From contig JAROBA010000010.1 in the NCBI GenBank assembly GCA_029432815.1, positions 62,001-126,000 of the forward strand: a stretch of DNA of 64,000 nt, given 5' to 3'. Position 1 is the stretch's first letter. Every line of letters begins with the position of its first letter. Origin of the DNA: Pontiellaceae bacterium B1224. Its GTDB lineage: Bacteria; Verrucomicrobiota; Kiritimatiellia; Kiritimatiellales; Pontiellaceae. The notes beneath the pieces are model-generated. The model was not told the origin of the DNA and ran no database searches. It saw nothing but the letters and a program-made list of their open reading frames with translations. Of the stretch, positions 1 through 64,000 are shown piece after piece. A program made the position numbers and the translations under genes.

Positions 1-207
1 CTGCTTTCCCCGTGGGTTGAAGATCTGGAGCTGGGTTATTTTGATGCTGAAAATAATACGTGGGAGTACGAATCTTCCGCGGACGAAGAATATAAATCAT
101 CGGGTAAGCCTCCCGGGGCGCTACGTATTGTGTTTAATCAAAATGGGCGGAAAAAGACGCGTAATATCCGTCTGCTCCGCCACGACCGCCATGTACTTGT
201 TTACTAA
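1..207 (+). CDS. gspJ: Type II secretion pseudopilin GspJ, C-terminal part
   Basis: The window opens inside a gene read in frame 1 that ends with TAA at 205-207, leaving 68 residues. The residues include VEDLELGYFD, an acidic stretch, and the pattern PGALRIVF, which match the C-terminal beta-region of GspJ minor pseudopilins. GspJ forms the tip of the type II secretion pseudopilus with GspI and GspK. It sits directly upstream of gspK and overlaps its proposed start by 17 bases, as expected for the gspIJK cluster. The 5' part lies outside the window, so the prepilin signal cannot be seen. Confidence 0.72.
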   Translation: MLSPWVEDLELGYFDAENNTWEYESSADEEYKSSGKPPGALRIVFNQNGRKKTRNIRLLRHDRHVLVY

Positions 208-1282
208 TCCATCTGAAAAACGGCGCGAAGGTGCCGTACTGCTGATTGTGCTCGGAGTCATCCTGCTCGCAAGCTGGATGCTGGTGCAGATCATTGCACG
301 GGTTGGCGAAGAGATGGCTTTGCGTGGGGAAGATGAACAGAACGATGCCCTTCAGGCATCCGCTTTCCAATCCTTGGAAATCACGCTGGGTGTTCTTGCA
401 GAAATCAAAGTGCTCGATGGTGGCCTCTACAGTCCCGTACAGGGGTGGGGCAATCCATTGGCCTATGCCGGCTTTGCATCCCATGCTGTTTCGAATGAAC
501 TGGGGTTCGTAGAAGACGACGAGCTGGAGGTTGGGGGCGTCGATGAAATTGTTCCGTTTGCATTTCCTCCCGGTATTCAGGTTGCGGTGGAGCTTCGCGA
601 TGAATCGGGCCGTTTTCCGCTTAACACGACGTCTGAAGAGCGGTGGAAGTTGCTGTTTGAAGAAATGGAGATTCAGTCTTCCGATGCCGCGATACTGACA
701 GACAGCCTGCTGGACTGGATTGATGCCGACGATGAAACTCGGTTAAACGGCGCAGAAAACGGAACGTATCAGCGGCGCGATCCCGCCTACCTTCCGGCGA
801 ATGCGCCGATTGCGAATCTATTGGATCTTCAGTTGATCGAAGGATTCGATCGTCTGTTCTTTGATGAAGAAGGCATTCCGAATGATCTGTACCGTACCTT
901 TAAGGAGTGCGTTACCGTAATCAATTGTGAAGCCGTGAACCTGAATGCCGCTCATCCGCTGGTGCTTGAGGTGATGGGCGAAGAACTCGATTTTGAACCC
1001 GAACGAATTACCGATTATATGGCCGGTATTGACATGGAACCGGGGACGCTGGATGACAATGTCCTGCGTCCGGGACTCGACGATCCCGACCTGCCAACGG
1101 ACAACGAAGGCGAGCCCCTCGATTTAAGCACAACCAGCCGTTTTCTAACGGTCTACATTTCCGCGATGTCCGGAGGAACGGTCTTTAATCTTTCCGCACG
1201 CCTCGATACAGAGACGCCTTCTGAACATCATATCTATCCGATGACGATTCTGGATTTACAGACGAAAGGGTCAACCCTGTGA
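191..1282 (+). CDS. gspK: Type II secretion minor pseudopilin GspK
   Basis: GspK is the capping minor pseudopilin of the type II secretion pseudopilus in the inner membrane and periplasm. From the ATG at 191 the protein has 363 residues and begins with a short basic leader (EKRREG), followed by the hydrophobic segment AVLLIVLGVILLASWML. Cleavage would fall after that Gly. Like other GspK proteins it lacks the Glu at mature position 5 found in major pilins. The acidic segment LLDWIDADDETR resembles the calcium-binding region of GspK. The open frame extends back to 17, but that extension overlaps the gspJ end and is not pilin-like, so 191 is preferred. It overlaps the next gene by 4 bases. Confidence 0.85.
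   Translation: MYLFTNPSEKRREGAVLLIVLGVILLASWMLVQIIARVGEEMALRGEDEQNDALQASAFQSLEITLGVLAEIKVLDGGLYSPVQGWGNPLAYAGFASHAVSNELGFVEDDELEVGGVDEIVPFAFPPGIQVAVELRDESGRFPLNTTSEERWKLLFEEMEIQSSDAAILTDSLLDWIDADDETRLNGAENGTYQRRDPAYLPANAPIANLLDLQLIEGFDRLFFDEEGIPNDLYRTFKECVTVINCEAVNLNAAHPLVLEVMGEELDFEPERITDYMAGIDMEPGTLDDNVLRPGLDDPDLPTDNEGEPLDLSTTSRFLTVYISAMSGGTVFNLSARLDTETPSEHHIYPMTILDLQTKGSTL
365..379. repeat. Palindrome TTCCAR-N3-YTGGAA, copy 1
   Basis: Exact copy with spacer TCC, inside gspK, read as FQSLE. Confidence 0.9.
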
Positions 1283-2487
1283 CCGAAAAACCATTAAAAA
1301 CAGAAAATAAAACCATTGTTCCAATGACGCCCGATCCGGTGCGATTGGTGCCTTCGGCGCGGTTTATTGTCGAGACGCTGGAACTGCCACCCGGTATTTC
1401 GCCACGCGACACGCCGGGCTTTCTGGAAGGTGAGGTCGAAGAACGATCTCTTTTCGCGCTTGAATCCACGTCGTGGGGCTATATGGAAACCCGAAAAAAG
1501 GGTTCCCCTGTTTCAATCCTTTTGTATTCAGCATTCCGGGATCAGGTAAACGGCGAAAGCGATCCGCATTACGCAGAGCGCCACGCGGTGCTTCCGGGCT
1601 TTGCAGCATTGGTCGGCCGAACCTGGCGGAAGACAACCTGGGTCACGCTGCTGGAACCGGCGTGCGTCACGCTGGTTCGCATTCCGGCTCGTTCCGGAAT
1701 TCCGAATTTTGTGCGCAGTCTGTATGGCAAGCGATTGGATGACGATTTGCTTACGGCCTGGGCTTTGCGCGATACGCTGTTGAATGACGTGGAAGTGTTG
1801 GAAGATGAGTGCATCGAAGAAGGACTGGTTCGATGCAAAAATCCTTCCAATGATCGGAAAGGCGGGGTGGTTTTCCCGCTCGAACGCTGTCTCGCTCCCG
1901 ACGAAAGCTGGAAACGGTTTGGCAGTGGGAAGCTCCTTTCGGAAGCAACCTTACGGGCCGCCGATGTTCGGGATTCGCATTTTCTGAATCAGATGAGAAA
2001 CCGCCGCAGGGCAGCCCGGCAATTGAATACATTTCTTCGACTGGCCGCTTTGTTGTTAATCGGGCTGAGCTTCTTTCAGTTTCGATATATTCAATTGAAG
2101 AAAAAAACGGAACAGCTTTCGGAGCAGCTTGCCACGCAGCGCCCGGTTGTTGCGGCACTGCAGCAACAGGAGGCCTTGGCAAAATCGGCAGGCCGGCTTT
2201 CGGATCCTCCGCTTGAAATTTTTACGTGGCTGACGGCGGTGAACGATGTCCGTCCGCAAAACATTTCGTTTCTGAGTACCTATGCCGATCGTGACGGGAA
2301 TCTCGGGTTTTCCGGAGAAGCCCCCAGCGTGGCCGAAGTGAATACGTTTCGGGATGGACTGAATCAGACAAACAGCTTCAGTGAGGTCGATACCAAAGAA
2401 ATCAGCAGTGCAAAACGCGGCGTCAAATTCAGCATACAGGTCAAGATGAATATCGATCAACTAACACAGAAAGGAGGCGATGCATAA
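1279..2487 (+). CDS. gspL: Type II secretion inner-membrane protein GspL-like
   Basis: GspL is the bitopic platform protein that links the cytoplasmic ATPase GspE to GspM and the pseudopilus. The protein has 402 residues: a cytoplasmic part of about 245 residues in place of the actin-like domain, one membrane segment at about 250-268 (LRLAALLLIGLSFFQF), a short coiled coil, and a PilN-like periplasmic domain at about 300-395. The sequence is divergent and the call rests strongly on topology and on its place between gspK and gspM. The start is GTG at 1279, overlapping the gspK stop as GTGA, which implies translational coupling. Confidence 0.75.
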   Translation: MTEKPLKTENKTIVPMTPDPVRLVPSARFIVETLELPPGISPRDTPGFLEGEVEERSLFALESTSWGYMETRKKGSPVSILLYSAFRDQVNGESDPHYAERHAVLPGFAALVGRTWRKTTWVTLLEPACVTLVRIPARSGIPNFVRSLYGKRLDDDLLTAWALRDTLLNDVEVLEDECIEEGLVRCKNPSNDRKGGVVFPLERCLAPDESWKRFGSGKLLSEATLRAADVRDSHFLNQMRNRRRAARQLNTFLRLAALLLIGLSFFQFRYIQLKKKTEQLSEQLATQRPVVAALQQQEALAKSAGRLSDPPLEIFTWLTAVNDVRPQNISFLSTYADRDGNLGFSGEAPSVAEVNTFRDGLNQTNSFSEVDTKEISSAKRGVKFSIQVKMNIDQLTQKGGDA

Positions 2488-3038
2488 TGCTTAAACTTCT
2501 TTCCCGTATTTCCTCTCGCGAACGCATTATGCTGGCCGCTCTGGTGCTGGTTGGTTCCATGATTTGGTTGAGCAGTCTATGGCGGAACTGGGAATCGGTT
2601 TCGGTTCGGTATCGTAAGGTGAAGCTTGAGCTCGATCAACAGTCCGTCTGGCTGGATAATGCCGACCGCTTTGAAAATGAACTGGAAGATTCGCTGGACC
2701 AGCTTGATCCGGATAAGACCTACAACGATGCGGAATTAATTGCCCTGATTGACAGCCTGGCACGGGAGCATAAGGTTTCTCACGATCTAGGCACGCCCAC
2801 GACCATTGAAGGAGAGTTGTTTCTTCAGCACACCCTGAAAGTCAGTGTTAAGAATGTGCCGTTGCCTAGGTTGATTGATTTCGAACGGAGTCTTGCAACC
2901 CGCTATCCGTATGCCTCGCTGGAAGATTTTTCAATTTCCGCCAATAAGGCCGATCCCCGGCTTCTGAATGCGCGCTTAACCATTAGTGCCTACCAATTGA
3001 CCACCGAAGAGGATTATTCGAATGCCCTTTTCGATTAG
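2487..3038 (+). CDS. gspM: Type II secretion inner-membrane protein GspM-like
   Basis: GspM is a small bitopic inner-membrane protein that pairs with GspL. This 183-residue protein has a short cytoplasmic N terminus, a membrane segment at about 14-31 (IMLAALVLVGSMIWLSSL), a coiled-coil stretch rich in E, D and L, and a ferredoxin-like alpha/beta C-terminal domain resembling GspM/PilO. Its ATG shares a base with the gspL stop (TAATG), so the two are probably co-translated. The sequence is too divergent to exclude a PilO-type name; operon position favours GspM. Confidence 0.72.
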   Translation: MLKLLSRISSRERIMLAALVLVGSMIWLSSLWRNWESVSVRYRKVKLELDQQSVWLDNADRFENELEDSLDQLDPDKTYNDAELIALIDSLAREHKVSHDLGTPTTIEGELFLQHTLKVSVKNVPLPRLIDFERSLATRYPYASLEDFSISANKADPRLLNARLTISAYQLTTEEDYSNALFD

Positions 3039-3057: not shown

Positions 3058-6000
3058 ATGAATAAACAATCAATCATTATTTTCGCTGCTTTGGCCCTGG
3101 CCTCCTCAACGCTGCATGCTCAAACCAATTCAGTGACGCCACCCCGAATTGTGGCGATGCCGATTGAATCGCTTGATCCTGCTGAAGAGATCGGACCGAT
3201 TGTACTTCAAAAAATGCCGATCGAACAGGTGTTTGAGCTGCTTCAGACCTATAGCGGCCGGGTGATCATTCCTGCTGCCGGTTTGCCGAAAACGTCCTTC
3301 ACGTTTAAAAGCTCCGAAAAGATGCGCCGCGATGAAGCCATTCTCGCCATGGAAACCCTGCTTAATTTAAACGGCATCCTGCTGGTGCCGCGAAAGAACG
3401 GCTTTCTCGAAGCGATCCCTCATAAACAGGCGCTGCGGCATGGACCGATTATGCAGGATGGAGAGGTGCTGGCGAGCGGTGCAGAACAACAGGTCTACGG
3501 CCGAATTTTCGAGCTGAATCATTTGGATTCAAAAAGCATGTATAAACAGATTCAAAATCTGCTTTCTCCCGGTGGCCTGGCGAGTGTTTTGAATCTTGAA
3601 TGGCGCAATTCGCTGCTTGTTTTTGATACCGATCAAAATCTCGATGCGCTCGCAACCGTCATCAAAATGCTGGATCAGCCTCCCGGGCATCGCGCGGAAG
3701 TGTATGTGATCCCGATCAAAAACAGCCGGGTATACAGTGTTTATTATGCGTTGCTTCATGCGCAGCGCTATCGCGCAAATGCCGCGCTGTACCGGGCTCG
3801 CTTTCATATCGATAGCGCGGCCAACCATCTGGTGGTGGTCTCTCCGCCGGAAAGCAAACCCTATATTGAAGAGCTGGTTGAAAAGCTGGATCGGGAGATT
3901 GCTCCGCTGACAACGAGCCAGGTGTATACCATCGAAAAGGGAAATCTCCGCACGATCTATAGCATCCTGCTCGGAATGATCCGCCATCAGCAATCGCAGT
4001 TTGGTAAGCGCGGTTTCCAAAGTTCGGAAACCTACCGCATTACACAGGATTTAAATGAGCCGGACACCATGGCTGAAACAGAGCCGGTTGAAACCCCGCC
4101 GGTTGAAACGGTGGTTTCAGAAATCAGTGCCGATGCCGCAAGCACAGCTGAGTTGCAGTTCAGCCCTTATATGGGGGTATGGCTGGATTATCAGAATAAT
4201 GCGTTGGTCGCGTACGGAACTCCGGCAGATTTGCGACGGGTTGGAGAACTGATTAAAAAGCTGGACCGGGAAACAGCGCCGTATACCAGCAGTGAAATCA
4301 TTAAGCTTAAACATGCCTATGCCGCCGGTCTGGGAAATTTGGTGAACCACATGGTGAATGTACAGCGCAACCTGTTTGCAAGGCAGGGACTCAGCAGCGG
4401 TGAAGTGCGGGAGGGGCAGGCGAGCGATGTTGCTGAAGATGCCTTTGAATTCAGCCCATACACGTATATCTGGACTGAACGGGCCAACAACGCCATTGTG
4501 GTGTATGGAACCCGGTCGGATATTGACCGGATTAAATCCATCATTTCGCTGATGGATGTGGCGCAAACCCCGGTTACACGCAGCAAAACGATTCCGGTTA
4601 AAAACACGCAGGCCACTACGGTGGCCAGCATGATCGGACGTATTATTTCCATGCAGCGATATCTTTATCAGCGCGCGGGGTTATATATCGGGGAGCCTCG
4701 CGATGCTGGAACGGCGCAGAGCGAAGGAAGCTCTATGGAGGTCGGGTTTGAGTTCACTCCGTATGCAATGGTGACGGCCGACCGAACCGGAAACTCGCTG
4801 TTTATCTACGGAACAGATCGGGACATCCAACGAGTGGAAGAATTGCTGGTTGATCTCGACCGGGAAAGCGCACCGATTACCAAGAGTAAAGTGTACTATT
4901 TAAAACATGCTGAAGCGTATAGCCTGAGCAGAATCGTGTCGCAGGTGATTGCCTCGCAACGCAGAATTTTCGAACGCCGCGGTCTGCGTTCGGGGGAAGA
5001 ATCTGCAGCAATGGATACTGAAATGAGCATGGGCTTTGAGTTCAGCGAATTTGCCACCATTGTTGCCGACCGAAGAAGCAACAGCCTTTTGTTCTATGGT
5101 ACCGATTCCGATATTACGCGTGTTGATGCCATGATTGAAGAAACAGATATTGCGGTTGAACCCATTACGGGTAGCCGGGTATTCCCACTGAAGCATGCGG
5201 AAGCTAATAATCTGTCACGCGTGTTGCAGCTCATTGTTACCAGTCAGCGAAGAGCCATGCAGTCGGTAGAATCTTCCAGCGAAAAAGTAAAGAACACGCA
5301 GAATAATGATGACAGCCTGAGCGCCGAAGGAGAGCTCGCTTTGCAGTTCAGTCCCTTCCTTTCGATTGTCCCTGATGCGCGTAATAATGCGCTGATTGTT
5401 TACGGCACGCATGGTGATCTGAAACATGTGGCTTCGTTGGTTGAGCAAACTGATGTGGAGGTCGCCCCGCTGACCCGCAGTCAGGTTTTCTTTCTGGAAA
5501 ATGCAAAGGCGAATACGCTGTCTTCAATTTTAACCCGAATGATTCGCAGTCAGCAGACTGCAATGCGGTTGGTGCAATCGCGTTTTCGTGCCGTGCAATA
5601 TCCGGGGGAAGAGGGAGAGAATGCCGGGCCCATACTTTATGATCCGAATCAATCGATGCAGTTCAGCCCGTATGTTTCTGTGGTTCCCAATGATCGGAAC
5701 AACTCTTTATTGATCTATGGTACGGAGGAAGATATTCGCCAGTTGGATGAGATTATTAAGCAAAATGATATTGTCGTTGCTCCCCGTACACAGAGCCGCA
5801 TTTTTTATATTCGCCATGCCGATGCAAACGATGTGGTACGGACGATTAACCCGTTGATCACATCGCAGCAACGGGTGCGTGAACGTGAGGCAACACTCCG
5901 CCGGTTCTACCGAAAAAGCGGCGGCGATTTGGAAGATCCCTTGTTGGATGCACCGGAAATGCTGAGCGGGGACGCGCTGCCAGAGACGCAGGATGTGGGT

Positions 6001-7086
6001 ATGGATTTTGATGAAGATCTTCAGTTCAGTCCCTATGTCACTCTGTCGGCCGATGATCGAAGTAATTCAATTCTCGTGTACGGAACCCCGTTTGATCTCG
6101 AGCAGGTTGAAAATCTGATTGAACGGGTGGATCGCGTTCTGCCTCAGGTTCAGATTGAAGTTGTGATTGCCGAAGTGATGCTCGAAAACGGACAGGTTTC
6201 CGGGTTGGATTCCTTCGGTGTCAGTTACGATAATCCCTTCCCGTTTCAGGTTGACGGGGCCGCTGCGGGCGGCGTTGCAAGTCGGGGCGGTATACTCGGG
6301 CAAACGGCTGAAATAGATGCCGGCGAAGGAGCGGCTGGAGATATCGGCATCGGATTAAATCCGTTCAGCCTTCAGATGGTATTCCGTACGGCCAAAGAAG
6401 ATGGCAAGGTCCGTATTCTTTCCGCGCCAACGATCACGACGAGTCATAATCGTCCGGCCAGCATTAATGTCGGCGAAGCCCGGCCCATCATCACCAGTTC
6501 CACCTCCACATTGAATAATAGCGACACTTCCCGTTCAACGGTGGAATACCGTGATATCGGTATCGAACTGAAGGTCGTTCCTTTGGTGAGCGATCAGGGC
6601 TATATCCAGATGGATATTGAACAAACGGTTGAAACGGTTATTGGCACGCAAACCATTGATAACAACGAGCAGCCAATCATTGGAACACGGCGCGCGAATT
6701 CATTTGTCAGTGTTCGGGATCAACAGATCATCGTGATGGGCGGGCTCCAATCAGAAACCACGATCAAGACGGAAGGCAAGGTTTGGATTCTGGGTGATAT
6801 CCCGTTGCTTGGACGTCTTTTCCGTCCCAAGAAGGATGAATCAACGGTTCGGGAACTGATCATTTTCATTCGCCCGCAACTGGTTTCGGATACCAGCACA
6901 CAGACGTTAATGGAACAGTTGGTTGAGGAGCCGGGGCTGGCATCTGGAGATGCGCTTATTTATCTCGAGAACAATCAGTTTGACGGACAGCTTGCACGGG
7001 TTGAAAAAGGTCGAAAGCTTTCCGACAGCTCCACAAACGAAGTAGCTGAAGTGGTTATTGAAGTGGAGGGTTCAGATGAGAAATAA
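3058..7086 (+). CDS. gspD: Oversized type II secretion secretin GspD with repeated N domains
   Basis: GspD forms the outer-membrane channel of type II secretion. A signal peptide (MNKQSIIIFAALALASSTLHAQ) is followed by an N0-like domain at about 45-123, two N1/N2-like modules at about 143-285, seven tandem N-type repeats at about 285-1035, and the secretin domain at about 1035-1290. The secretin core shows VRILSAPTITT, the region DIGIELKVVP, and the terminal IPLLGRLFRP. Each of the seven repeats contains FSP/FTP-like and YGTxxD motifs; the YGT tyrosines are at about residues 386, 483, 584, 680, 782, 887 and 1008. At 1342 residues it is about twice the usual 650-750. The start has an upstream AAGGAAATCCT ribosome site. 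Confidence 0.93.
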   Translation: MNKQSIIIFAALALASSTLHAQTNSVTPPRIVAMPIESLDPAEEIGPIVLQKMPIEQVFELLQTYSGRVIIPAAGLPKTSFTFKSSEKMRRDEAILAMETLLNLNGILLVPRKNGFLEAIPHKQALRHGPIMQDGEVLASGAEQQVYGRIFELNHLDSKSMYKQIQNLLSPGGLASVLNLEWRNSLLVFDTDQNLDALATVIKMLDQPPGHRAEVYVIPIKNSRVYSVYYALLHAQRYRANAALYRARFHIDSAANHLVVVSPPESKPYIEELVEKLDREIAPLTTSQVYTIEKGNLRTIYSILLGMIRHQQSQFGKRGFQSSETYRITQDLNEPDTMAETEPVETPPVETVVSEISADAASTAELQFSPYMGVWLDYQNNALVAYGTPADLRRVGELIKKLDRETAPYTSSEIIKLKHAYAAGLGNLVNHMVNVQRNLFARQGLSSGEVREGQASDVAEDAFEFSPYTYIWTERANNAIVVYGTRSDIDRIKSIISLMDVAQTPVTRSKTIPVKNTQATTVASMIGRIISMQRYLYQRAGLYIGEPRDAGTAQSEGSSMEVGFEFTPYAMVTADRTGNSLFIYGTDRDIQRVEELLVDLDRESAPITKSKVYYLKHAEAYSLSRIVSQVIASQRRIFERRGLRSGEESAAMDTEMSMGFEFSEFATIVADRRSNSLLFYGTDSDITRVDAMIEETDIAVEPITGSRVFPLKHAEANNLSRVLQLIVTSQRRAMQSVESSSEKVKNTQNNDDSLSAEGELALQFSPFLSIVPDARNNALIVYGTHGDLKHVASLVEQTDVEVAPLTRSQVFFLENAKANTLSSILTRMIRSQQTAMRLVQSRFRAVQYPGEEGENAGPILYDPNQSMQFSPYVSVVPNDRNNSLLIYGTEEDIRQLDEIIKQNDIVVAPRTQSRIFYIRHADANDVVRTINPLITSQQRVREREATLRRFYRKSGGDLEDPLLDAPEMLSGDALPETQDVGMDFDEDLQFSPYVTLSADDRSNSILVYGTPFDLEQVENLIERVDRVLPQVQIEVVIAEVMLENGQVSGLDSFGVSYDNPFPFQVDGAAAGGVASRGGILGQTAEIDAGEGAAGDIGIGLNPFSLQMVFRTAKEDGKVRILSAPTITTSHNRPASINVGEARPIITSSTSTLNNSDTSRSTVEYRDIGIELKVVPLVSDQGYIQMDIEQTVETVIGTQTIDNNEQPIIGTRRANSFVSVRDQQIIVMGGLQSETTIKTEGKVWILGDIPLLGRLFRPKKDESTVRELIIFIRPQLVSDTSTQTLMEQLVEEPGLASGDALIYLENNQFDGQLARVEKGRKLSDSSTNEVAEVVIEVEGSDEK

Positions 7087-7429
7087 AAGCTGCTTTATTT
7101 GGCTGTTAGCGCTGTCTGCTGGTCTGGGTTTTGCGGATGAAAAAGAACAACCGTACAAATCACTCATAGATAATTCGCCCTTCCTGACCCCGGCTTTCAG
7201 GGCGAGGCTGGTTAAACACGACTCCACTTCGCTCAAGTTTATCGGGTATACTCAAATTGGAACGATCTGGCATTTTGCGCTGATCGATAAGAAGAGCGGA
7301 AAAACGCTCTGGGTTAAAATCGGTGAAGAATATGACGGCATCAAAATTGAGTCGTTTGATGAAGTGGCGAAGAGCATACATCTGACGATAGCCGACATCG
7401 CCTATGATTTAACCCTGGTAAAGGAGTAG
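7076..7429 (+). CDS. Small exported protein, GspC/PilP-like
   Basis: This 117-residue protein has a signal peptide or membrane anchor (CFIWLLALSAGLGFADE) and a small beta-rich domain with FIGYTQIGTIWHFALIDKK and a C-terminal YDLTLVKE. The pattern of short strands matches the homology-region fold shared by GspC and PilP, the periplasmic clamp proteins that contact the N0 domain of secretins. Its place directly after gspD, in an operon with no other gspC in view, supports that role, but similarity is weak. The ATG at 7076 is preceded by GGAGG at 7064-7068 and lies within the end of gspD; an in-frame ATG at 7058 is less well supported. Confidence 0.6.
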   Translation: MRNKSCFIWLLALSAGLGFADEKEQPYKSLIDNSPFLTPAFRARLVKHDSTSLKFIGYTQIGTIWHFALIDKKSGKTLWVKIGEEYDGIKIESFDEVAKSIHLTIADIAYDLTLVKE

Positions 7430-7435
7430 GTAGAA

Positions 7436-9139
7436 ATGCGTATTGATTCCATTTCGAGCAACTCGGGGCTGGGTAATATTATCGGCCAACTTGATCCAGA
7501 GGCGGAGCGAAGTGTTGAAACCGCAGCACGAGAGGATAAGCTGAACAGCTTATCTTCCGCTACTGGGATCGATGCCCGGGAACTTCTGTCCATGCTGGCT
7601 CATGCCTCCGGCTATCCACTGCTTGCTGCATTTGAACCGGATTTTGAAGAATCGGCAGGTTTTTCCGAGCGGTTAATTCACAGCTGCGGCGCCTTGCCCA
7701 TTCGGCCTCCGGAGGATTGCGATCCGGGAAGCTTGTGCATCGCGACACTTTGGCCGCCGAGCGAGCGGGTCGAACGCTGGGTCTATGCGGTTTGCGGTCG
7801 GGAGGTTCAATGGTTTCTGGTGGAACCTCGGAAACTTATGGCCGTCATCACCAGTAATTTTGGCGTTGGGGCTGCCAGTCTTGACGAGTCCGATACAGAA
7901 GGACTTGCCGGAGCGGTTAAAGAAGACGAGGAAGATGAAAATGCCGCAATCATCCGCTTTGTGAATGATGTCATTCAACAGGCGATGCGTGATCGGGCAA
8001 CCGATATTCACTTCGAGCCGCGAAAAGAACACCTGGACATTCGCTATCGGATTGACGGGCGCTTGGTTCCGGTCAGGGTTCCGTCTAACCTGGTCAATTT
8101 TCAGAGTGCGATTATTTCCCGCATCAAGATCATGTCGCGCATGAATATTTCAGAAAAACGCCGCCCGCAGGATGGTCGTATCACTTACGGAAAAGGACGG
8201 CAGGAAGTGGATGTGCGCGTTTCAACGCTTCCAACGATGTATGGTGAAAGTGTCAGCATGCGTTTGTTGAATGAACAGAGCCAACCGACTTCCATTCAAG
8301 AGCTGGGGTTTCTGCCGGACGATGAAGAGCGCATTAACCGTGTGCTGGATTTGCCGCATGGCATCATGCTGATCACCGGTCCGACGGGCTCAGGAAAGAG
8401 CACCACGCTGGCTTCGTTTATGCGGCAGATTGGCACCCCGGAACGCCGGATCATCACGGTGGAAGATCCCATTGAATATGAAATTCCGCAGATCAATCAG
8501 ACGCAGGTGAATTCCGAAATCGGGCTGACCTTTGCCAGTGCTTTGCGCAGTGTCCTGCGTCAGGATCCGGATGTGATTATGGTGGGGGAGATTCGTGACC
8601 GCGAAACGGCTGATATTGCGGTGCGTGCATCGCTTACCGGACACTTGGTTCTGAGTACGCTTCACACCAACGATGCGCCGGGAGCCATTGTGCGTTTGGT
8701 GGATATGGGGATCGAACCCTTTCTCATCGCATCCTCGGTCAAGATGGTCATTGCGCAGCGGTTGATTCGTCGCCTCTGCCAGCACTGTGCGGTGCCAGAC
8801 ACCACTCCGCCCGAAGTGATTCGCTCTTGTTTAATGGCGCTGGGTATGGATCAGGCGCTGGCCGAAACGGCCGATGGGCTGCGCATGCCATCCGGCTGCG
8901 ATTCCTGCTCCGGGATCGGGTTCCGCGGTCGCGTCGGTATGTTCGAGTTATTGCAGGTGGATGAAACCATTCATTCGTTAATTGTGCAGCGGGCTTCAGC
9001 ACACGATATCCGTCGCCAGGCATTGGCGAACGGCATGCGAAGTCTGCAGGCCTGCGGATGGGAACATGCGGCACGAGGACAGTCTGCCTTGTCGGAAGTC
9101 ATGCGTTATGCCGAGATGGCAGAACATGGTGGGGGATAA
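7436..9139 (+). CDS. gspE: Type II secretion ATPase GspE
   Basis: GspE is the cytoplasmic hexameric ATPase that drives pseudopilus assembly. The 567-residue protein has a divergent N-terminal GspL-binding region to about 150, the N2 domain (RFVNDVIQQAMRDRATDIHFEP), Walker A GPTGSGKST at 315-323, the Asp-box region around 340, Walker B VIMVGEIRD near 379-387, and a His-box LSTLHTNDA. A zinc knuckle is formed by C448, C451, C488 and C491, as in GspE and PilB. It starts 6 bases after the preceding gene and ends 2 bases before gspF. Confidence 0.95.
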   Translation: MRIDSISSNSGLGNIIGQLDPEAERSVETAAREDKLNSLSSATGIDARELLSMLAHASGYPLLAAFEPDFEESAGFSERLIHSCGALPIRPPEDCDPGSLCIATLWPPSERVERWVYAVCGREVQWFLVEPRKLMAVITSNFGVGAASLDESDTEGLAGAVKEDEEDENAAIIRFVNDVIQQAMRDRATDIHFEPRKEHLDIRYRIDGRLVPVRVPSNLVNFQSAIISRIKIMSRMNISEKRRPQDGRITYGKGRQEVDVRVSTLPTMYGESVSMRLLNEQSQPTSIQELGFLPDDEERINRVLDLPHGIMLITGPTGSGKSTTLASFMRQIGTPERRIITVEDPIEYEIPQINQTQVNSEIGLTFASALRSVLRQDPDVIMVGEIRDRETADIAVRASLTGHLVLSTLHTNDAPGAIVRLVDMGIEPFLIASSVKMVIAQRLIRRLCQHCAVPDTTPPEVIRSCLMALGMDQALAETADGLRMPSGCDSCSGIGFRGRVGMFELLQVDETIHSLIVQRASAHDIRRQALANGMRSLQACGWEHAARGQSALSEVMRYAEMAEHGGG

Positions 9140-9141
9140 GT

Positions 9142-10410
9142 ATGCCGAGATTCTTCTATAGAGCGGTTAATGCGAACGGGCATTCGACTTCCGGTGCGGT
9201 GGAGGCGGCCGATGCCAGTGCCGTACGCAAAAAGCTCCGAGTTGATGGACTGACCACTGTTGATATTCGACCTGCAAATCCAACCGACGGTGCGCATTCA
9301 TCCGGTTCTGAAAAACACACCTCGGTTTCTTCCGCTGAAATGGAAAAATTTACGAAGGCACAAATCAGCGCGGGTGAGGCGAATAAAATTGCGTTGGAAT
9401 TTTTCACGAGGGTTCATCAGTTGGTCGATAACGGCATGCCTTTGGGCGATGCCGTTAAAGCGCTGGGTCAGCGTTTAACGGTACCACGCCAGAAAGCACT
9501 CTGTACCGGGCTCTGGCAGGAACTGAGCAAAGGGTCGGATATGGGCGGGGCCATGCGGCGGTTTCCGAAAATATTCGATTCAACCACAGTAGCGATGATT
9601 GAAGCCGGTGAAGCGACCGGGAATCTTGCGCCCATTCTTGCCAACCTGATTGAAATGCTGGATACCCGCCGAGAGATGCGCAAGGAAATCGGCTCAGGAT
9701 TGGCCTATCCTGCATTTATTCTGATGATGGTTTTCTTCGTGATGATATTTGTTCTGTTCTATCTGATGCCCAACGTGCAAACCATGATGGACTCCATGGG
9801 AGGGGAGCTCACATTGCCCACCCGCATTGTGATGGGGTTTGCCCGCTTCAGCCTGACCGGAGGTCCGTTTGTTCTGGCGGCATTTGGGGGGATTGCCCTG
9901 TTAATTCGGCAATGGCGGAAGTCGGAGGGGGGGCGCATGAAATCGGACCAATGGATGCTTCAGATTCCAATCGTCAAAGGAATCGCACAAAATGCGGAAC
10001 TCTGCCGCATGTGTAATTTAACGGCCGTGCTGCTGGATAGCGGAGTGGATACCACCGATGCGTTACGCCTGATTGAACGGGCCATGCAAAATCGATATCT
10101 CAGAGGTCTGTTTTCCTCAAGCCGTACCCTCATTAGCGACGGAGCCTCCTTCGCAAATGCCCTGCGCCATAATCACGTGATGCCCGATATGGATTTGGAT
10201 ATTCTGAGCATCAGTGAAGATGCCGGTGATTTGGTAGCCGGCTTCCGCAGTGTGTATAAATCGCGAAATGAAGAGCTGCGGGAACAGATGAAAAAACTCA
10301 CCGTCTGGATTTCCACGGTAGCGCTCTTCTTTGTGTTTGCCCTAGTCTTCCTTTTGGTCTTCGGCATCGTCAGCAGTATCCTTCAGCTCAGCAGCAGCGT
10401 GCTCGGATAA
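9142..10410 (+). CDS. gspF: Type II secretion inner-membrane platform protein GspF
   Basis: GspF is the polytopic membrane platform of the type II secretion system. The 422-residue protein begins MPRFFYRAVNANGH, typical of the family, and carries two GspF domains: the first near 90-210, with the motif EAGEATGNLAPIL, and the second near 295-415, with SISEDAGDL. Membrane segments lie near 190-212, 240-265 and at the C terminus. The ATG at 9142 is favoured over an upstream in-frame ATG at 9058 because it gives the canonical N terminus and lies 2 bases after the gspE stop. It is the last gene of the operon. Confidence 0.94.
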   Translation: MPRFFYRAVNANGHSTSGAVEAADASAVRKKLRVDGLTTVDIRPANPTDGAHSSGSEKHTSVSSAEMEKFTKAQISAGEANKIALEFFTRVHQLVDNGMPLGDAVKALGQRLTVPRQKALCTGLWQELSKGSDMGGAMRRFPKIFDSTTVAMIEAGEATGNLAPILANLIEMLDTRREMRKEIGSGLAYPAFILMMVFFVMIFVLFYLMPNVQTMMDSMGGELTLPTRIVMGFARFSLTGGPFVLAAFGGIALLIRQWRKSEGGRMKSDQWMLQIPIVKGIAQNAELCRMCNLTAVLLDSGVDTTDALRLIERAMQNRYLRGLFSSSRTLISDGASFANALRHNHVMPDMDLDILSISEDAGDLVAGFRSVYKSRNEELREQMKKLTVWISTVALFFVFALVFLLVFGIVSSILQLSSSVLG

Positions 10411-10421
10411 CGGCGGAAGAA

Positions 10422-10820
10422 CTAATAGCTGATGAGGTTAGTGAGAGGGATGTAATCTATTTCCTGAAAATCGGCGACTTCATTCAGCCACGCCTGTTGC
10501 ACAAAGGCTATGTGTTCCGGATGAGTATTGTAGGTATCGTATGCCGCCTGATCCGCAAATTCCATAGAGAGCCCAAAATCAAAACTATTCTTTGGACTGG
10601 TTTCTTCCAAGATCTGGAAGTTTTCAACTCCGGGAATGGCTGACAGCGCTGCGGCTTTTGAAAGAAACAGAGCTTCTGCTTCCGAGCCTCTGACGTGATT
10701 CAGCTTAAAAAAGACAGTGTGGGTAATCATTTCACTGCCCTTGGTTACTGAGGGGGATTCAGTTGTTGCACATCCGGTCAGCAGGAAGGCTATACATAAA
10801 ACGGATATAAATTTTATCAT
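10422..10820 (-). CDS. Lipoprotein with stress-responsive Dabb domain
   Basis: The 132-residue protein has a lipoprotein signal with lipobox LLTGC (Cys17), so it is probably anchored in a membrane. The rest is a dimeric alpha/beta-barrel (Dabb) domain, starting at ITHTVFFKL and including a FGLSMEFADQAAYDTYNTHPEH core and a C-terminal hydrophobic strand. Dabb domains occur in plant stress proteins and some polyketide cyclases; the substrate here is unknown. It converges with gspF, only 11 bases away, and no terminator is visible between them. Export of a Dabb domain is less common than the cytoplasmic form. Confidence 0.8.
   Translation of the reverse strand: MIKFISVLCIAFLLTGCATTESPSVTKGSEMITHTVFFKLNHVRGSEAEALFLSKAAALSAIPGVENFQILEETSPKNSFDFGLSMEFADQAAYDTYNTHPEHIAFVQQAWLNEVADFQEIDYIPLTNLISY
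10605..10619. repeat. Palindrome copy 2
   Basis: Exact TTCCAR-N3-YTGGAA, spacer GAT, inside the Dabb lipoprotein gene; read on the minus strand as FQILE. Confidence 0.9.
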
Positions 10821-61931: not shown

Positions 61932-62695
61932 TCCGCGAAATCACCTCCAGCACCAATCCACAGATCAAACACCTGCGCGCGCTCTCCTCCTCCAAAAAGG
62001 CCCGGCAGGAATCCGACACCTTCATCATCGAAGGCTGGCGCGGCATTCAAACTCTGCTCGATCACAAGAGCCCCTACTACAACATCGAACAGCTCGTCAT
62101 TTCCAAGGATTGGAACAAACCGCTCCCCCAAACCATCGACACCCTCGTTCTGCCCGCACACGTCTTTGAAAAAATTTCCGATGTCCGGAACGCCCAAGGC
62201 ATCCTTGCCGTCGTGTCGCCCATCGAAATGGAACACACACTTCCAACCACTGGAAAATTCCTATTGCTCGATAACCTGCGCGATCCCGGCAATCTCGGCA
62301 CGCTCATCCGTTCCGCCGTTGGCTCCGGCTTTGACGGTGTTTTGCTCTATGGCGACTGCGTTGAACCCTTCAACCCCAAAGTCATCCGCTCCACCATGGG
62401 CACCTTCGCCTTTTCCAAAGTCTGGAACATCACGCCGCCCGAACTTTTCCAGACCCTGGAAAACGGATTCGATCTCTGCGTCACCACCGGACTCGACGGA
62501 GAAAACCTCTACGACGCCGCCTTCAGCGATAAAACCATCTTAGTCATCGGCTCCGAAGCCCACGGAGTTTCCGAGGAGTTATCCGAACGCGCCACCAAAA
62601 AAATAACCATTCCCCTGCAACCCGAATGCGAATCCCTCAACGCCGCCATCGCCGGCAGCATCTGCATGTTTCACATGCAGAACAGTCATCGCTAA
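61928..62695 (+). CDS. TrmH/SpoU-family RNA methyltransferase
   Basis: A SPOUT-fold 2'-O-methyltransferase acting on rRNA or tRNA. The 255-residue protein has an N-terminal RNA-binding domain (NPQIKHLRALSSSKKARQESDTFIIEGWRGI) and the catalytic domain with DNLRDPGNLGTLIRSAVGSGFDGVLLYGDCVEPFNPKVIRSTMG, VIGSEAHGVSEEL, and IPLQPECESLNAAIAGSICMFH, the three SpoU motifs. It carries four exact palindromes in 361 bases. Confidence 0.93.
   Translation: MIREITSSTNPQIKHLRALSSSKKARQESDTFIIEGWRGIQTLLDHKSPYYNIEQLVISKDWNKPLPQTIDTLVLPAHVFEKISDVRNAQGILAVVSPIEMEHTLPTTGKFLLLDNLRDPGNLGTLIRSAVGSGFDGVLLYGDCVEPFNPKVIRSTMGTFAFSKVWNITPPELFQTLENGFDLCVTTGLDGENLYDAAFSDKTILVIGSEAHGVSEELSERATKKITIPLQPECESLNAAIAGSICMFHMQNSHR
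62101..62115. repeat. Palindrome copy 32
   Basis: Exact copy, spacer GGA, read as SKDWN. Confidence 0.9.
62241..62255. repeat. Palindrome copy 33
   Basis: Exact copy, spacer CCA, read as LPTTGK. Confidence 0.9.
62413..62427. repeat. Palindrome copy 34
   Basis: Exact copy, spacer AGT, read as SKVWN. Confidence 0.9.
62447..62461. repeat. Palindrome copy 35
   Basis: Exact copy, spacer ACC, read as FQTLE. Confidence 0.9.
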
Positions 62696-64000
62696 ATCGC
62701 TACGCGCTCATTCAGCTGATCGATCCGCTTCACGATTCCCTGGGCCACATCAATCCGACCCTCAAACAGATCAATCAGCGTGCCGTGCCGCGTGAACGGG
62801 TGTTCGTTCAGCGCGCTCTTCTCCAGATAGCCGTTCGCCACAATATGCCGCACAATGCGCTGCACAAACTCCAGCTGATGGCTGTCGAGCGACTGATCGT
62901 TAATGAATTCCGAAAAAAGCGCATTCGCCGCCGCCTGATCCAGTCCCACCAATCCCGCCACCAGTTTCAGCAGCGGTTCGTCGCCGAACGCCTTGCGATA
63001 ATCCTCGGCACTGCCCAGCTCATCCCAAAGCACATGCTCCAGATGGTTGCAGTCGTGCTCGGTCAGTTCCTGATTAAACCGCAGTTTATGCACCACCAGA
63101 TCATTTTCATAATCCTGCAGATAGGCATCCACCTTTTTGCGATAGCTTTGAAATTCGCCTGATCCATATTCGCCCGGATGTTCATTCACCCCCAGCACTG
63201 CATCCTCAAACGAGGTATAATAAATCGTGGTTTTATCCGCTTCCAATAATTGGATCAAATCGCGCAGCGCCAGCCGCACGCGTTCATAATCGAAGGTGTC
63301 CGCCGCCTTCCAGAAGGCATCCGTCTGCACCTCCGCAATCAGTTCCGCCTGCTGTTTCACCTGCGGCAGATTGCCGATTTTCTGCAGATTTTCAGCTGTC
63401 GCCTGCACCTTCATGCGCGGTCTGGAAACCGGCTCGCCGCGCAACGCGGCATATTCAATCGTATACATCAGATAATCGAACCGCTTCGCCAGTTCTTCAT
63501 CCTCAATCGCCGGCACCAGCGGCGCAATCTGCCGTTCCAGTTCGCGCAGCATTTCATCCGAAATCGTCTGCCAGCGTTTTTTCTGATTATACCGATGGAT
63601 AAACTCAATCCGCATCCGATTGTAAAAGCGCGATTCATCAATCTCGCAAACCGTCGCATGCAGTCCATCCACCAGACCTTTGCGATACGCGGCCAAGGCG
63701 TCCGTCTGATGGTCGGCATGCTGCAGCTCCTGCGCAATACGCGCCCGGATGTTAAACAGATTTTCCGAAAGCGACTTCACCGCCTTCGCCTCTTTCCCGT
63801 TTTTATTCGCGCGGAAATACTCGAAGTTGCCGCAATAGTCGAAAATCACAAATGCTTCTTTATCCTGCCCGCCGCCGAACAGGTTTTCACATAAACGCGT
63901 GCCCCGCCCGATCATCTGCCAGAACTTCGCCTTCGACCGCACCCGCTTGAAAAAGACCAGATTCACCAGTTCCGGAATATCAATTCCCGTATCCAGCATA
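62692..64000 (-). CDS. hsdR: Type I restriction enzyme R subunit (HsdR, EcoEI type), C-terminal part
   Basis: About 436 residues of a gene that begins beyond the window. The visible part starts in the helicase C-terminal motor: MLDTGIDIPELVNLVFFKRVRSKAKFWQMIGRGTRLCENLFGG, with motif VI QMIGRGTR, then the long helical C-terminal domain of EcoEI-type HsdR (VSRPRMKVQATAENLQKIGNLPQVKQQAELIAE). HsdR drives DNA translocation and cleavage with HsdM and HsdS, which are not in this window. It converges with the RNA methyltransferase gene, overlapping its end by 4 bases. Confidence 0.85.
   Translation of the reverse strand, partial: MLDTGIDIPELVNLVFFKRVRSKAKFWQMIGRGTRLCENLFGGGQDKEAFVIFDYCGNFEYFRANKNGKEAKAVKSLSENLFNIRARIAQELQHADHQTDALAAYRKGLVDGLHATVCEIDESRFYNRMRIEFIHRYNQKKRWQTISDEMLRELERQIAPLVPAIEDEELAKRFDYLMYTIEYAALRGEPVSRPRMKVQATAENLQKIGNLPQVKQQAELIAEVQTDAFWKAADTFDYERVRLALRDLIQLLEADKTTIYYTSFEDAVLGVNEHPGEYGSGEFQSYRKKVDAYLQDYENDLVVHKLRFNQELTEHDCNHLEHVLWDELGSAEDYRKAFGDEPLLKLVAGLVGLDQAAANALFSEFINDQSLDSHQLEFVQRIVRHIVANGYLEKSALNEHPFTRHGTLIDLFEGRIDVAQGIVKRIDQLNERVAI

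What the first reader, a model, noticed from the sequence alone, without database searches (positions are those of the whole stretch)
3058..7086. Secretin with seven extra tandem N-type repeats
Typical GspD has N0 to N3 (four periplasmic domains). Here N0 and two N1/N2-like modules are followed by seven more repeats, each about 100 residues with an FSP...YGTxxD pattern and an R/Q-rich insertion. The periplasmic ring stack could be far longer than usual, perhaps to span a wide periplasm or thick envelope layer, or to accommodate large cargo.
Basis: partly seen in the sequence, partly recalled or inferred. Interest (0 to 1): 0.62.

Follow-up and report, generated by a model that had tools for sequence, protein, structure and literature searches.

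The report
Secretin with seven stacked N3 domains
A marine bacterium's protein-export channel has ten periplasmic ring domains instead of the usual four, because the one nearest the outer-membrane pore (N3) is present in seven copies, which should make the export tube about twice as long; the same design recurs, with six or seven copies, in seven other genomes of its phylum.

Summary
The gene at 3058-7086 is real: a 1342-aa type II secretion secretin (GspD; NCBIfam TIGR02517 478 bits, cutoff 351) in a complete gspGHIJKLM-D-orf-E-F operon. Its domain order is N0-N1-N2-(N3)x7-secretin. Profiles built from 29 ordinary four-domain GspDs assign the first three domains to N0, N1 and N2 and all seven repeats to N3 (48-103 bits; at most 23 bits to N1/N2). 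So there are six extra domains, not seven. The repeats are old (25-42% identical), under purifying selection, and recur in eight genomes of two classes (six or seven N3 copies, same operon); a sister GspD has three. A misassembly is excluded. A predicted two-repeat fragment has the GspD N-domain fold (1.6 A over 66 residues to XcpQ). Most likely the extra copies form six more rings, giving a tube of about 35-41 nm instead of 20 nm (extrapolated). The purpose is unknown. A generally wide periplasm is not a sufficient reason, because the same genome has an ordinary four-domain GspD. The published maximum I found is six rings (Thermus PilQ), and T2SS secretins are described as having four. This is a new variant of a known kind.

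The parts
3058..7086 (+). gspD, 1342 aa: N0-N1-N2-(N3)x7-secretin
3058..3120 (+). signal-peptide-like N-terminus (residues 1-21)
   Evidence: read from sequence (MNKQSIIIFAALALASSTLHA); not run through a predictor
3190..3462 (+). N0 domain (residues 45-135)
   Evidence: 71.9 bits to the N0 profile of 29 ordinary GspDs
3481..3684 (+). N1 domain (142-209)
   Evidence: 41 bits to the N1 profile
3685..3900 (+). N2 domain (210-281)
   Evidence: 19.8 bits to the N2 profile
3901..4275 (+). R3, N3-type repeat 1 (282-406)
   Evidence: 76.5 bits to the N3 profile
4276..4566 (+). R4, N3-type repeat 2 (407-503); counterpart absent in G909
   Evidence: 54.6 bits
4567..4869 (+). R5, N3-type repeat 3 (504-604); counterpart absent in the other-class homologues; least conserved
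   Evidence: 48.3 bits
4870..5157 (+). R6, N3-type repeat 4 (605-700)
   Evidence: 77.5 bits; in the modelled fragment
5158..5463 (+). R7, N3-type repeat 5 (701-802)
   Evidence: 86.1 bits; 1.6 A over 66 residues to XcpQ
5464..5778 (+). R8, N3-type repeat 6 (803-907)
   Evidence: 72.4 bits
5779..6138 (+). R9, N3-type repeat 7, next to the barrel (908-1027); most likely the original N3
   Evidence: 103 bits, the best of all
6139..6927 (+). secretin (barrel and gate) region (1028-1290)
   Evidence: PF00263 at residues 1113-1276; GspD chains in the PDB
17..1282 (+). gspK (true start may lie further in)
   Evidence: NF037980 1.1e-23, below its cutoff; conserved position
1279..2487 (+). gspL-like (PilN domain)
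   Evidence: PF05137 1.2e-5
2487..3038 (+). gspM-like
   Evidence: PF04612 0.0039, below its cutoff
7058..7429 (+). small exported-protein gene conserved after gspD in all long and intermediate operons (invariant NSPF); possible inner-membrane-side partner
   Evidence: no Pfam or credible PDB match
7436..9139 (+). gspE ATPase
   Evidence: best model TIGR02533 8.2e-157, below its cutoff
9142..10410 (+). gspF (ORF open from 9058; likely start ATG at 9142)
   Evidence: best model TIGR02120 8.2e-67, below its cutoff

Best explanation
The gene encodes the outer-membrane secretin of a dedicated type II secretion system. Within one verrucomicrobial lineage its N3 ring-building domain was amplified in tandem (3, 6 and 7 copies are seen), giving N0-N1-N2-(N3)x7-secretin. 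Inferred mechanism: as in other secretins each N domain forms one ring of the oligomer, so the channel carries ten stacked periplasmic rings and is roughly twice as long as an ordinary GspD (extrapolated 35-41 nm against 20 nm for PulD). N0 docks to the inner-membrane platform and the pseudopilus pushes folded substrates along the tube. Each N3-type domain carries a loop insertion, which in ordinary N3 domains may correspond to the constriction sites, so the tube could hold several successive constrictions rather than one. Shown: domain assignment, N-domain fold of the repeats, conservation, operon, recurrence. Inferred: oligomer, stacking, length, loops in the lumen. Unknown: substrate and why the length is selected.
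For: Nine Secretin_N domains and one Secretin domain; GspD equivalog 478 bits over cutoff 351. N0/N1/N2/N3 profile assignment. Two-repeat model pLDDT 66.4, about 77 in the cores, with best PDB matches almost all secretin N domains: Foldseek E 1.4e-5 to ETEC GspD, Z 9.1 and 1.6 A over 66 residues to XcpQ. Whole-gene dN/dS 0.07, repeat cores 0.036. Copies keep order and identity across genomes. Long forms form one clade with the three-N3 form as sister. Same 11-gene operon each time. Literature: PulD with N0-N3 is 20 nm long and has N3 constriction sites (PMC6882859); six-ring Thermus PilQ makes a channel about 35 nm long (PMC4463427; PMC5745081).
Against: No oligomer or full-length model: the 1036-aa N-region model failed (pLDDT 36.7). 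The two-repeat model leaves the relative placement of neighbouring domains uncertain (rmsd 11-15 A when both are superposed). Loops of 24-53 residues could let parts of the chain hang outside a regular stack. The ring height used for the length estimate comes from other secretins.
Confidence: 0.78

Rival explanations
1. The long tube is an adaptation to a wide periplasm or thick envelope: it is needed simply to span the gap, as proposed for Thermus PilQ.
For: Thermus PilQ has six rings and its authors link them to a wide periplasm (PMC5745081, PMC4463427). Pontiella species make viscous sulfated exopolymers (PMC7356697).
Against: The same genome encodes an ordinary four-domain GspD and five other secretins; only 3 of 28 genomes of the genus have the long form. 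PulD itself is linked flexibly to its platform with a 5-10 nm gap (PMC6882859), so width need not dictate ring number.
Confidence: 0.2
2. The extra N3 rings form an enlarged antechamber or serial lock for special cargo (long, multi-domain or fibrous exoenzymes, or a longer pseudopilus).
For: N3 is the domain that carries constriction sites (PMC6882859) and it alone is amplified. Copies keep separate identities across lineages, suggesting distinct roles. The operon is a second, separate system.
Against: No cargo identified; no non-T2SS neighbour is shared across the operons of different classes (coarse ORF comparison). Pilin-signal counts do not clearly separate holders from non-holders.
Confidence: 0.35
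3. The repeats are a flexible tether, not a ring stack: only some N3 copies form rings and the rest hang as beads, perhaps binding peptidoglycan or polysaccharide.
For: Acidic, poorly conserved loops (74% identity against 94% for cores) and uncertain domain packing in the model.
Against: Repeats score as N3, a ring-building domain, with conserved cores; linkers between repeats are only a few residues.
Confidence: 0.12
4. Near-neutral repeat expansion: tandem duplication was tolerated and copy number drifts without benefit.
For: Copy number varies (3, 6, 7) and different copies are missing in different lineages.
Against: Strong purifying selection on the repeat cores and long retention of six or seven distinct copies.
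Confidence: 0.08
5. Misassembly or recent duplication artefact.
For: None found.
Against: Repeats 25-42% identical, no long near-identical DNA repeat, eight genomes share the layout.
Confidence: 0.005

Closest known systems
Type II secretion secretin GspD (PulD, XcpQ, EpsD; TIGR02517)
   Same: N0, N1, N2, N3, secretin order; equivalog score; full gsp operon; N-domain fold
   Different: Seven N3-type domains instead of one: ten N domains instead of four
Thermus thermophilus PilQ (N0-N5, six rings, about 35 nm channel)
   Same: Enlarged stack of ring domains on a secretin
   Different: Type IV pilus/DNA uptake secretin; different N0/N1; six N domains against ten here; P0001 scores below the PilQ cutoff (197 against 284)
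Deinococcus DR_0774 secretin (PDB 8co1)
   Same: Secretin whose N domain matches repeat R7 at 38% identity over 63 aligned residues
   Different: Named a type IV piliation protein; 740 aa against 1342
G464 GspD (L099, 918 aa)
   Same: Sister of the long clade, same operon with the small orf
   Different: Three N3-type copies

Membership tests
GspD (T2SS secretin) | GspD equivalog model over its cutoff | tested here: met
   478.1 bits, cutoff 351.35
GspD (T2SS secretin) | C-terminal secretin domain | tested here: met
   PF00263 2e-42
GspD (T2SS secretin) | N0, N1, N2 in order at the N-terminus | tested here: met
   N0 is not found by Pfam's own N0 model in P0001 but is by the profile of ordinary GspDs
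GspD (T2SS secretin) | Encoded with T2SS platform, ATPase and pseudopilins | tested here: met
   11-gene operon; several genes score below curated cutoffs
GspD (T2SS secretin), canonical form | Exactly one N3 domain (four N domains in all) | tested here: not met
   seven N3-type domains; so filed as a variant GspD, not a canonical one
GspD (T2SS secretin) | About 15-subunit outer-membrane channel that exports folded proteins | not testable with these tools
   needs structure and secretion assays
GspD (T2SS secretin) | Pilotin-binding S domain (optional) | not tested
   C-terminal tail not analysed
PilQ (type IV pilus secretin) | PilQ model over its cutoff | tested here: not met
   197.5 bits, cutoff 284.35

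The most novel reading that the evidence does not exclude
A T2SS whose secretin is a ten-ring, roughly 35-41 nm tube with several serial N3 constrictions, i.e. a multi-lock export tunnel carried by a horizontally moving operon, whose ring number has been changed ring by ring in evolution.
Probability: 0.3. Interest if true: 0.75.

Novelty: new variant of a known kind. Interest (0 to 1): 0.52.

Why it matters
Secretin ring number is described as a property of each machine type (T2SS four, Thermus PilQ six). A clade of one T2SS with one, three, six and seven N3 copies, in a single conserved operon, is a natural experiment on what N rings do: whether they set reach across the periplasm, gate the channel, or hold cargo. 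It also gives a target where ring number can be changed without changing system.

Tried and rejected
Misassembly/recent duplication: rejected. PilQ identity: rejected. Non-N-domain fold: rejected. Full N-region structure with two sequences: failed, pLDDT 36.7. First repeat-pair alignment was out of register because overlapping fragments aligned by identity; replaced by non-overlapping pairs. Search for shared neighbours of the operon: none seen across classes beyond gsp genes and shadow frames; coarse. Pilin-signal counts as a hint to cargo: inconclusive. Small orf as GspC-HR/PilP-like: suspected from its pattern, but no Pfam hit and no credible PDB match. Plasmid records: no match. Other phyla could not be surveyed: the single genome-contig scan found only the 87% relative. 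My first reading that ordinary relatives have five N domains was wrong: they have N0-N3, some with long loops.

Full report
What is there. The ORF at 3058-7086 (+) encodes 1342 aa. Pfam finds nine Secretin_N stretches (2.7e-82) and one Secretin domain (2e-42). The NCBIfam GspD equivalog scores 478 bits against a cutoff of 351, PilQ 197 against 284. The units are residues 142-209, 210-281 and seven longer ones ending at 1027.

Which N domains are repeated. I built N0, N1, N2 and N3 profiles from 29 ordinary GspDs of another class of the same phylum and scored the window's units: residues 45-135 are N0 (71.9 bits), R1 is N1 (41.0), R2 is N2 (19.8), and R3-R9 are all N3 (48-103 bits; at most 23 bits to N1 or N2). 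R9, next to the barrel, is the best N3 match. So the architecture is N0-N1-N2-(N3)x7-secretin: six extra domains, all copies of the one that in known GspDs joins the barrel and carries constriction sites (PMC6882859; PMC10550240, describes T2SS N-modules as N0, N1 and N2, with N3 as part of the C-module).

Fold. AlphaFold on the whole N region with two sequences failed (pLDDT 36.7). A two-repeat fragment (R6-R7) with six non-overlapping repeat pairs as alignment gave pLDDT 66.4, about 77 in the cores, and two beta-alpha-beta-beta-alpha units. Its best PDB matches are nearly all secretin N domains (Foldseek E 1.4e-5; XcpQ 1.6 A over 66 residues, Z 9.1). The packing between the two domains is not reliable.

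Real and old. The repeats are 25-42% identical to one another, with no long near-identical DNA repeat. Between the window and its 87% relative dN/dS is 0.07 for the gene, 0.036 for repeat cores and 0.10 for the loops. R5 is the least conserved (74% identity).

Distribution. The window lies in a genome whose 87% relative is named Pontiellaceae bacterium B12219. The long GspD is in 3 of 28 genomes of the genus, in one more genome of the class (G909, another family; 4 of 346 genomes of the class), and in four genomes of another class (G088, G264, G454, G455). N3 copies: seven in the three Pontiella-group genomes, six in G909 and in the four others, three in a sister GspD (L099, G464), one in ordinary forms (Pfam agrees for L105 and L049 with eight Secretin_N and for L040 with three, and finds four of five in L099).

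History. On the last-N3-plus-secretin tree all long forms form one clade (95/96, 100/99 before G909 was added), with L099 as sister, away from the Kiritimatiellia-type GspD that the same genome also carries; holding the Pontiella long forms with those is rejected (AU p = 0.003). Repeats are colinear across lineages: Pontiella copies 1, 2, 4, 5, 6, 7 match copies 1-6 of the other class, leaving R5 without a counterpart (the assignment around copies 2 and 3 is weaker), while G909 matches 1, 3, 4, 5, 6, 7, leaving R4 without one. Single rings were gained or lost while the others kept their identity. The patchy distribution suggests transfer of the operon between classes; this is inferred, and deep paralogy with many losses is not excluded.

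Operon. All eight long forms and L099 lie in the same eleven-gene order G-H-I-J-K-L-M-D-orf-E-F; the ordinary GspD of G264 has the same order but the small orf was not detected there. The small orf (window 7058-7429) has an invariant NSPF motif and no recognised relative. Its place after gspD suggests a secretin partner, untested.

Most likely working. Inferred from known secretins: one ring per N domain. PulD with four N domains is 20 nm long (PMC6882859); the pIV barrel plus N3 is 9.6 nm (PMC8563730), leaving about 3.5 nm for each of N0-N2. Thermus PilQ with six rings is about 35 nm (PMC4463427). Each N3 copy carries a loop insertion at the same place, so several constrictions are possible. 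That the tube is long for a wide periplasm is not well supported, since the same genome has an ordinary four-domain GspD and most relatives do without the long one. A cargo or gating role fits better but no cargo is known.

Limits. Other phyla were not surveyed; six rings is the highest number I found in papers, and only openly licensed papers were searched. Ring stacking, length and function are not shown here.

Noticed in passing
window 7058-7429 and L046, L103-L107, L109, L113, L116: Small exported-looking protein with an invariant NSPF motif, conserved between gspD and gspE in all long and intermediate operons; no Pfam or credible PDB relative.
   Followed up: partly
L038 9532-9894 (-) and window 10422-10820 (-): Two similar small Dabb-like genes flank the T2SS operon on both sides (both match the same gene of the 87% relative at 71-75% identity), possibly marking its insertion.
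   Followed up: no
L040 / L111 (G000:C111): The genome's ordinary four-domain GspD stands apart from other gsp genes, next to hydrogenase-like and murein-ligase-like genes.
   Followed up: partly
G000 genome: Seven secretin genes and about nine to ten T2SSE-type ATPases in one genome.
   Followed up: no
L116 (G909:C290) copy U4 against window R7: One repeat is 67% identical between families while its neighbours are 41-53%, so rings evolve at unequal rates or were exchanged.
   Followed up: no
window 62692-63999 (-): EcoEI_R_C domain (type I restriction subunit end), cut by the window edge.
   Followed up: no
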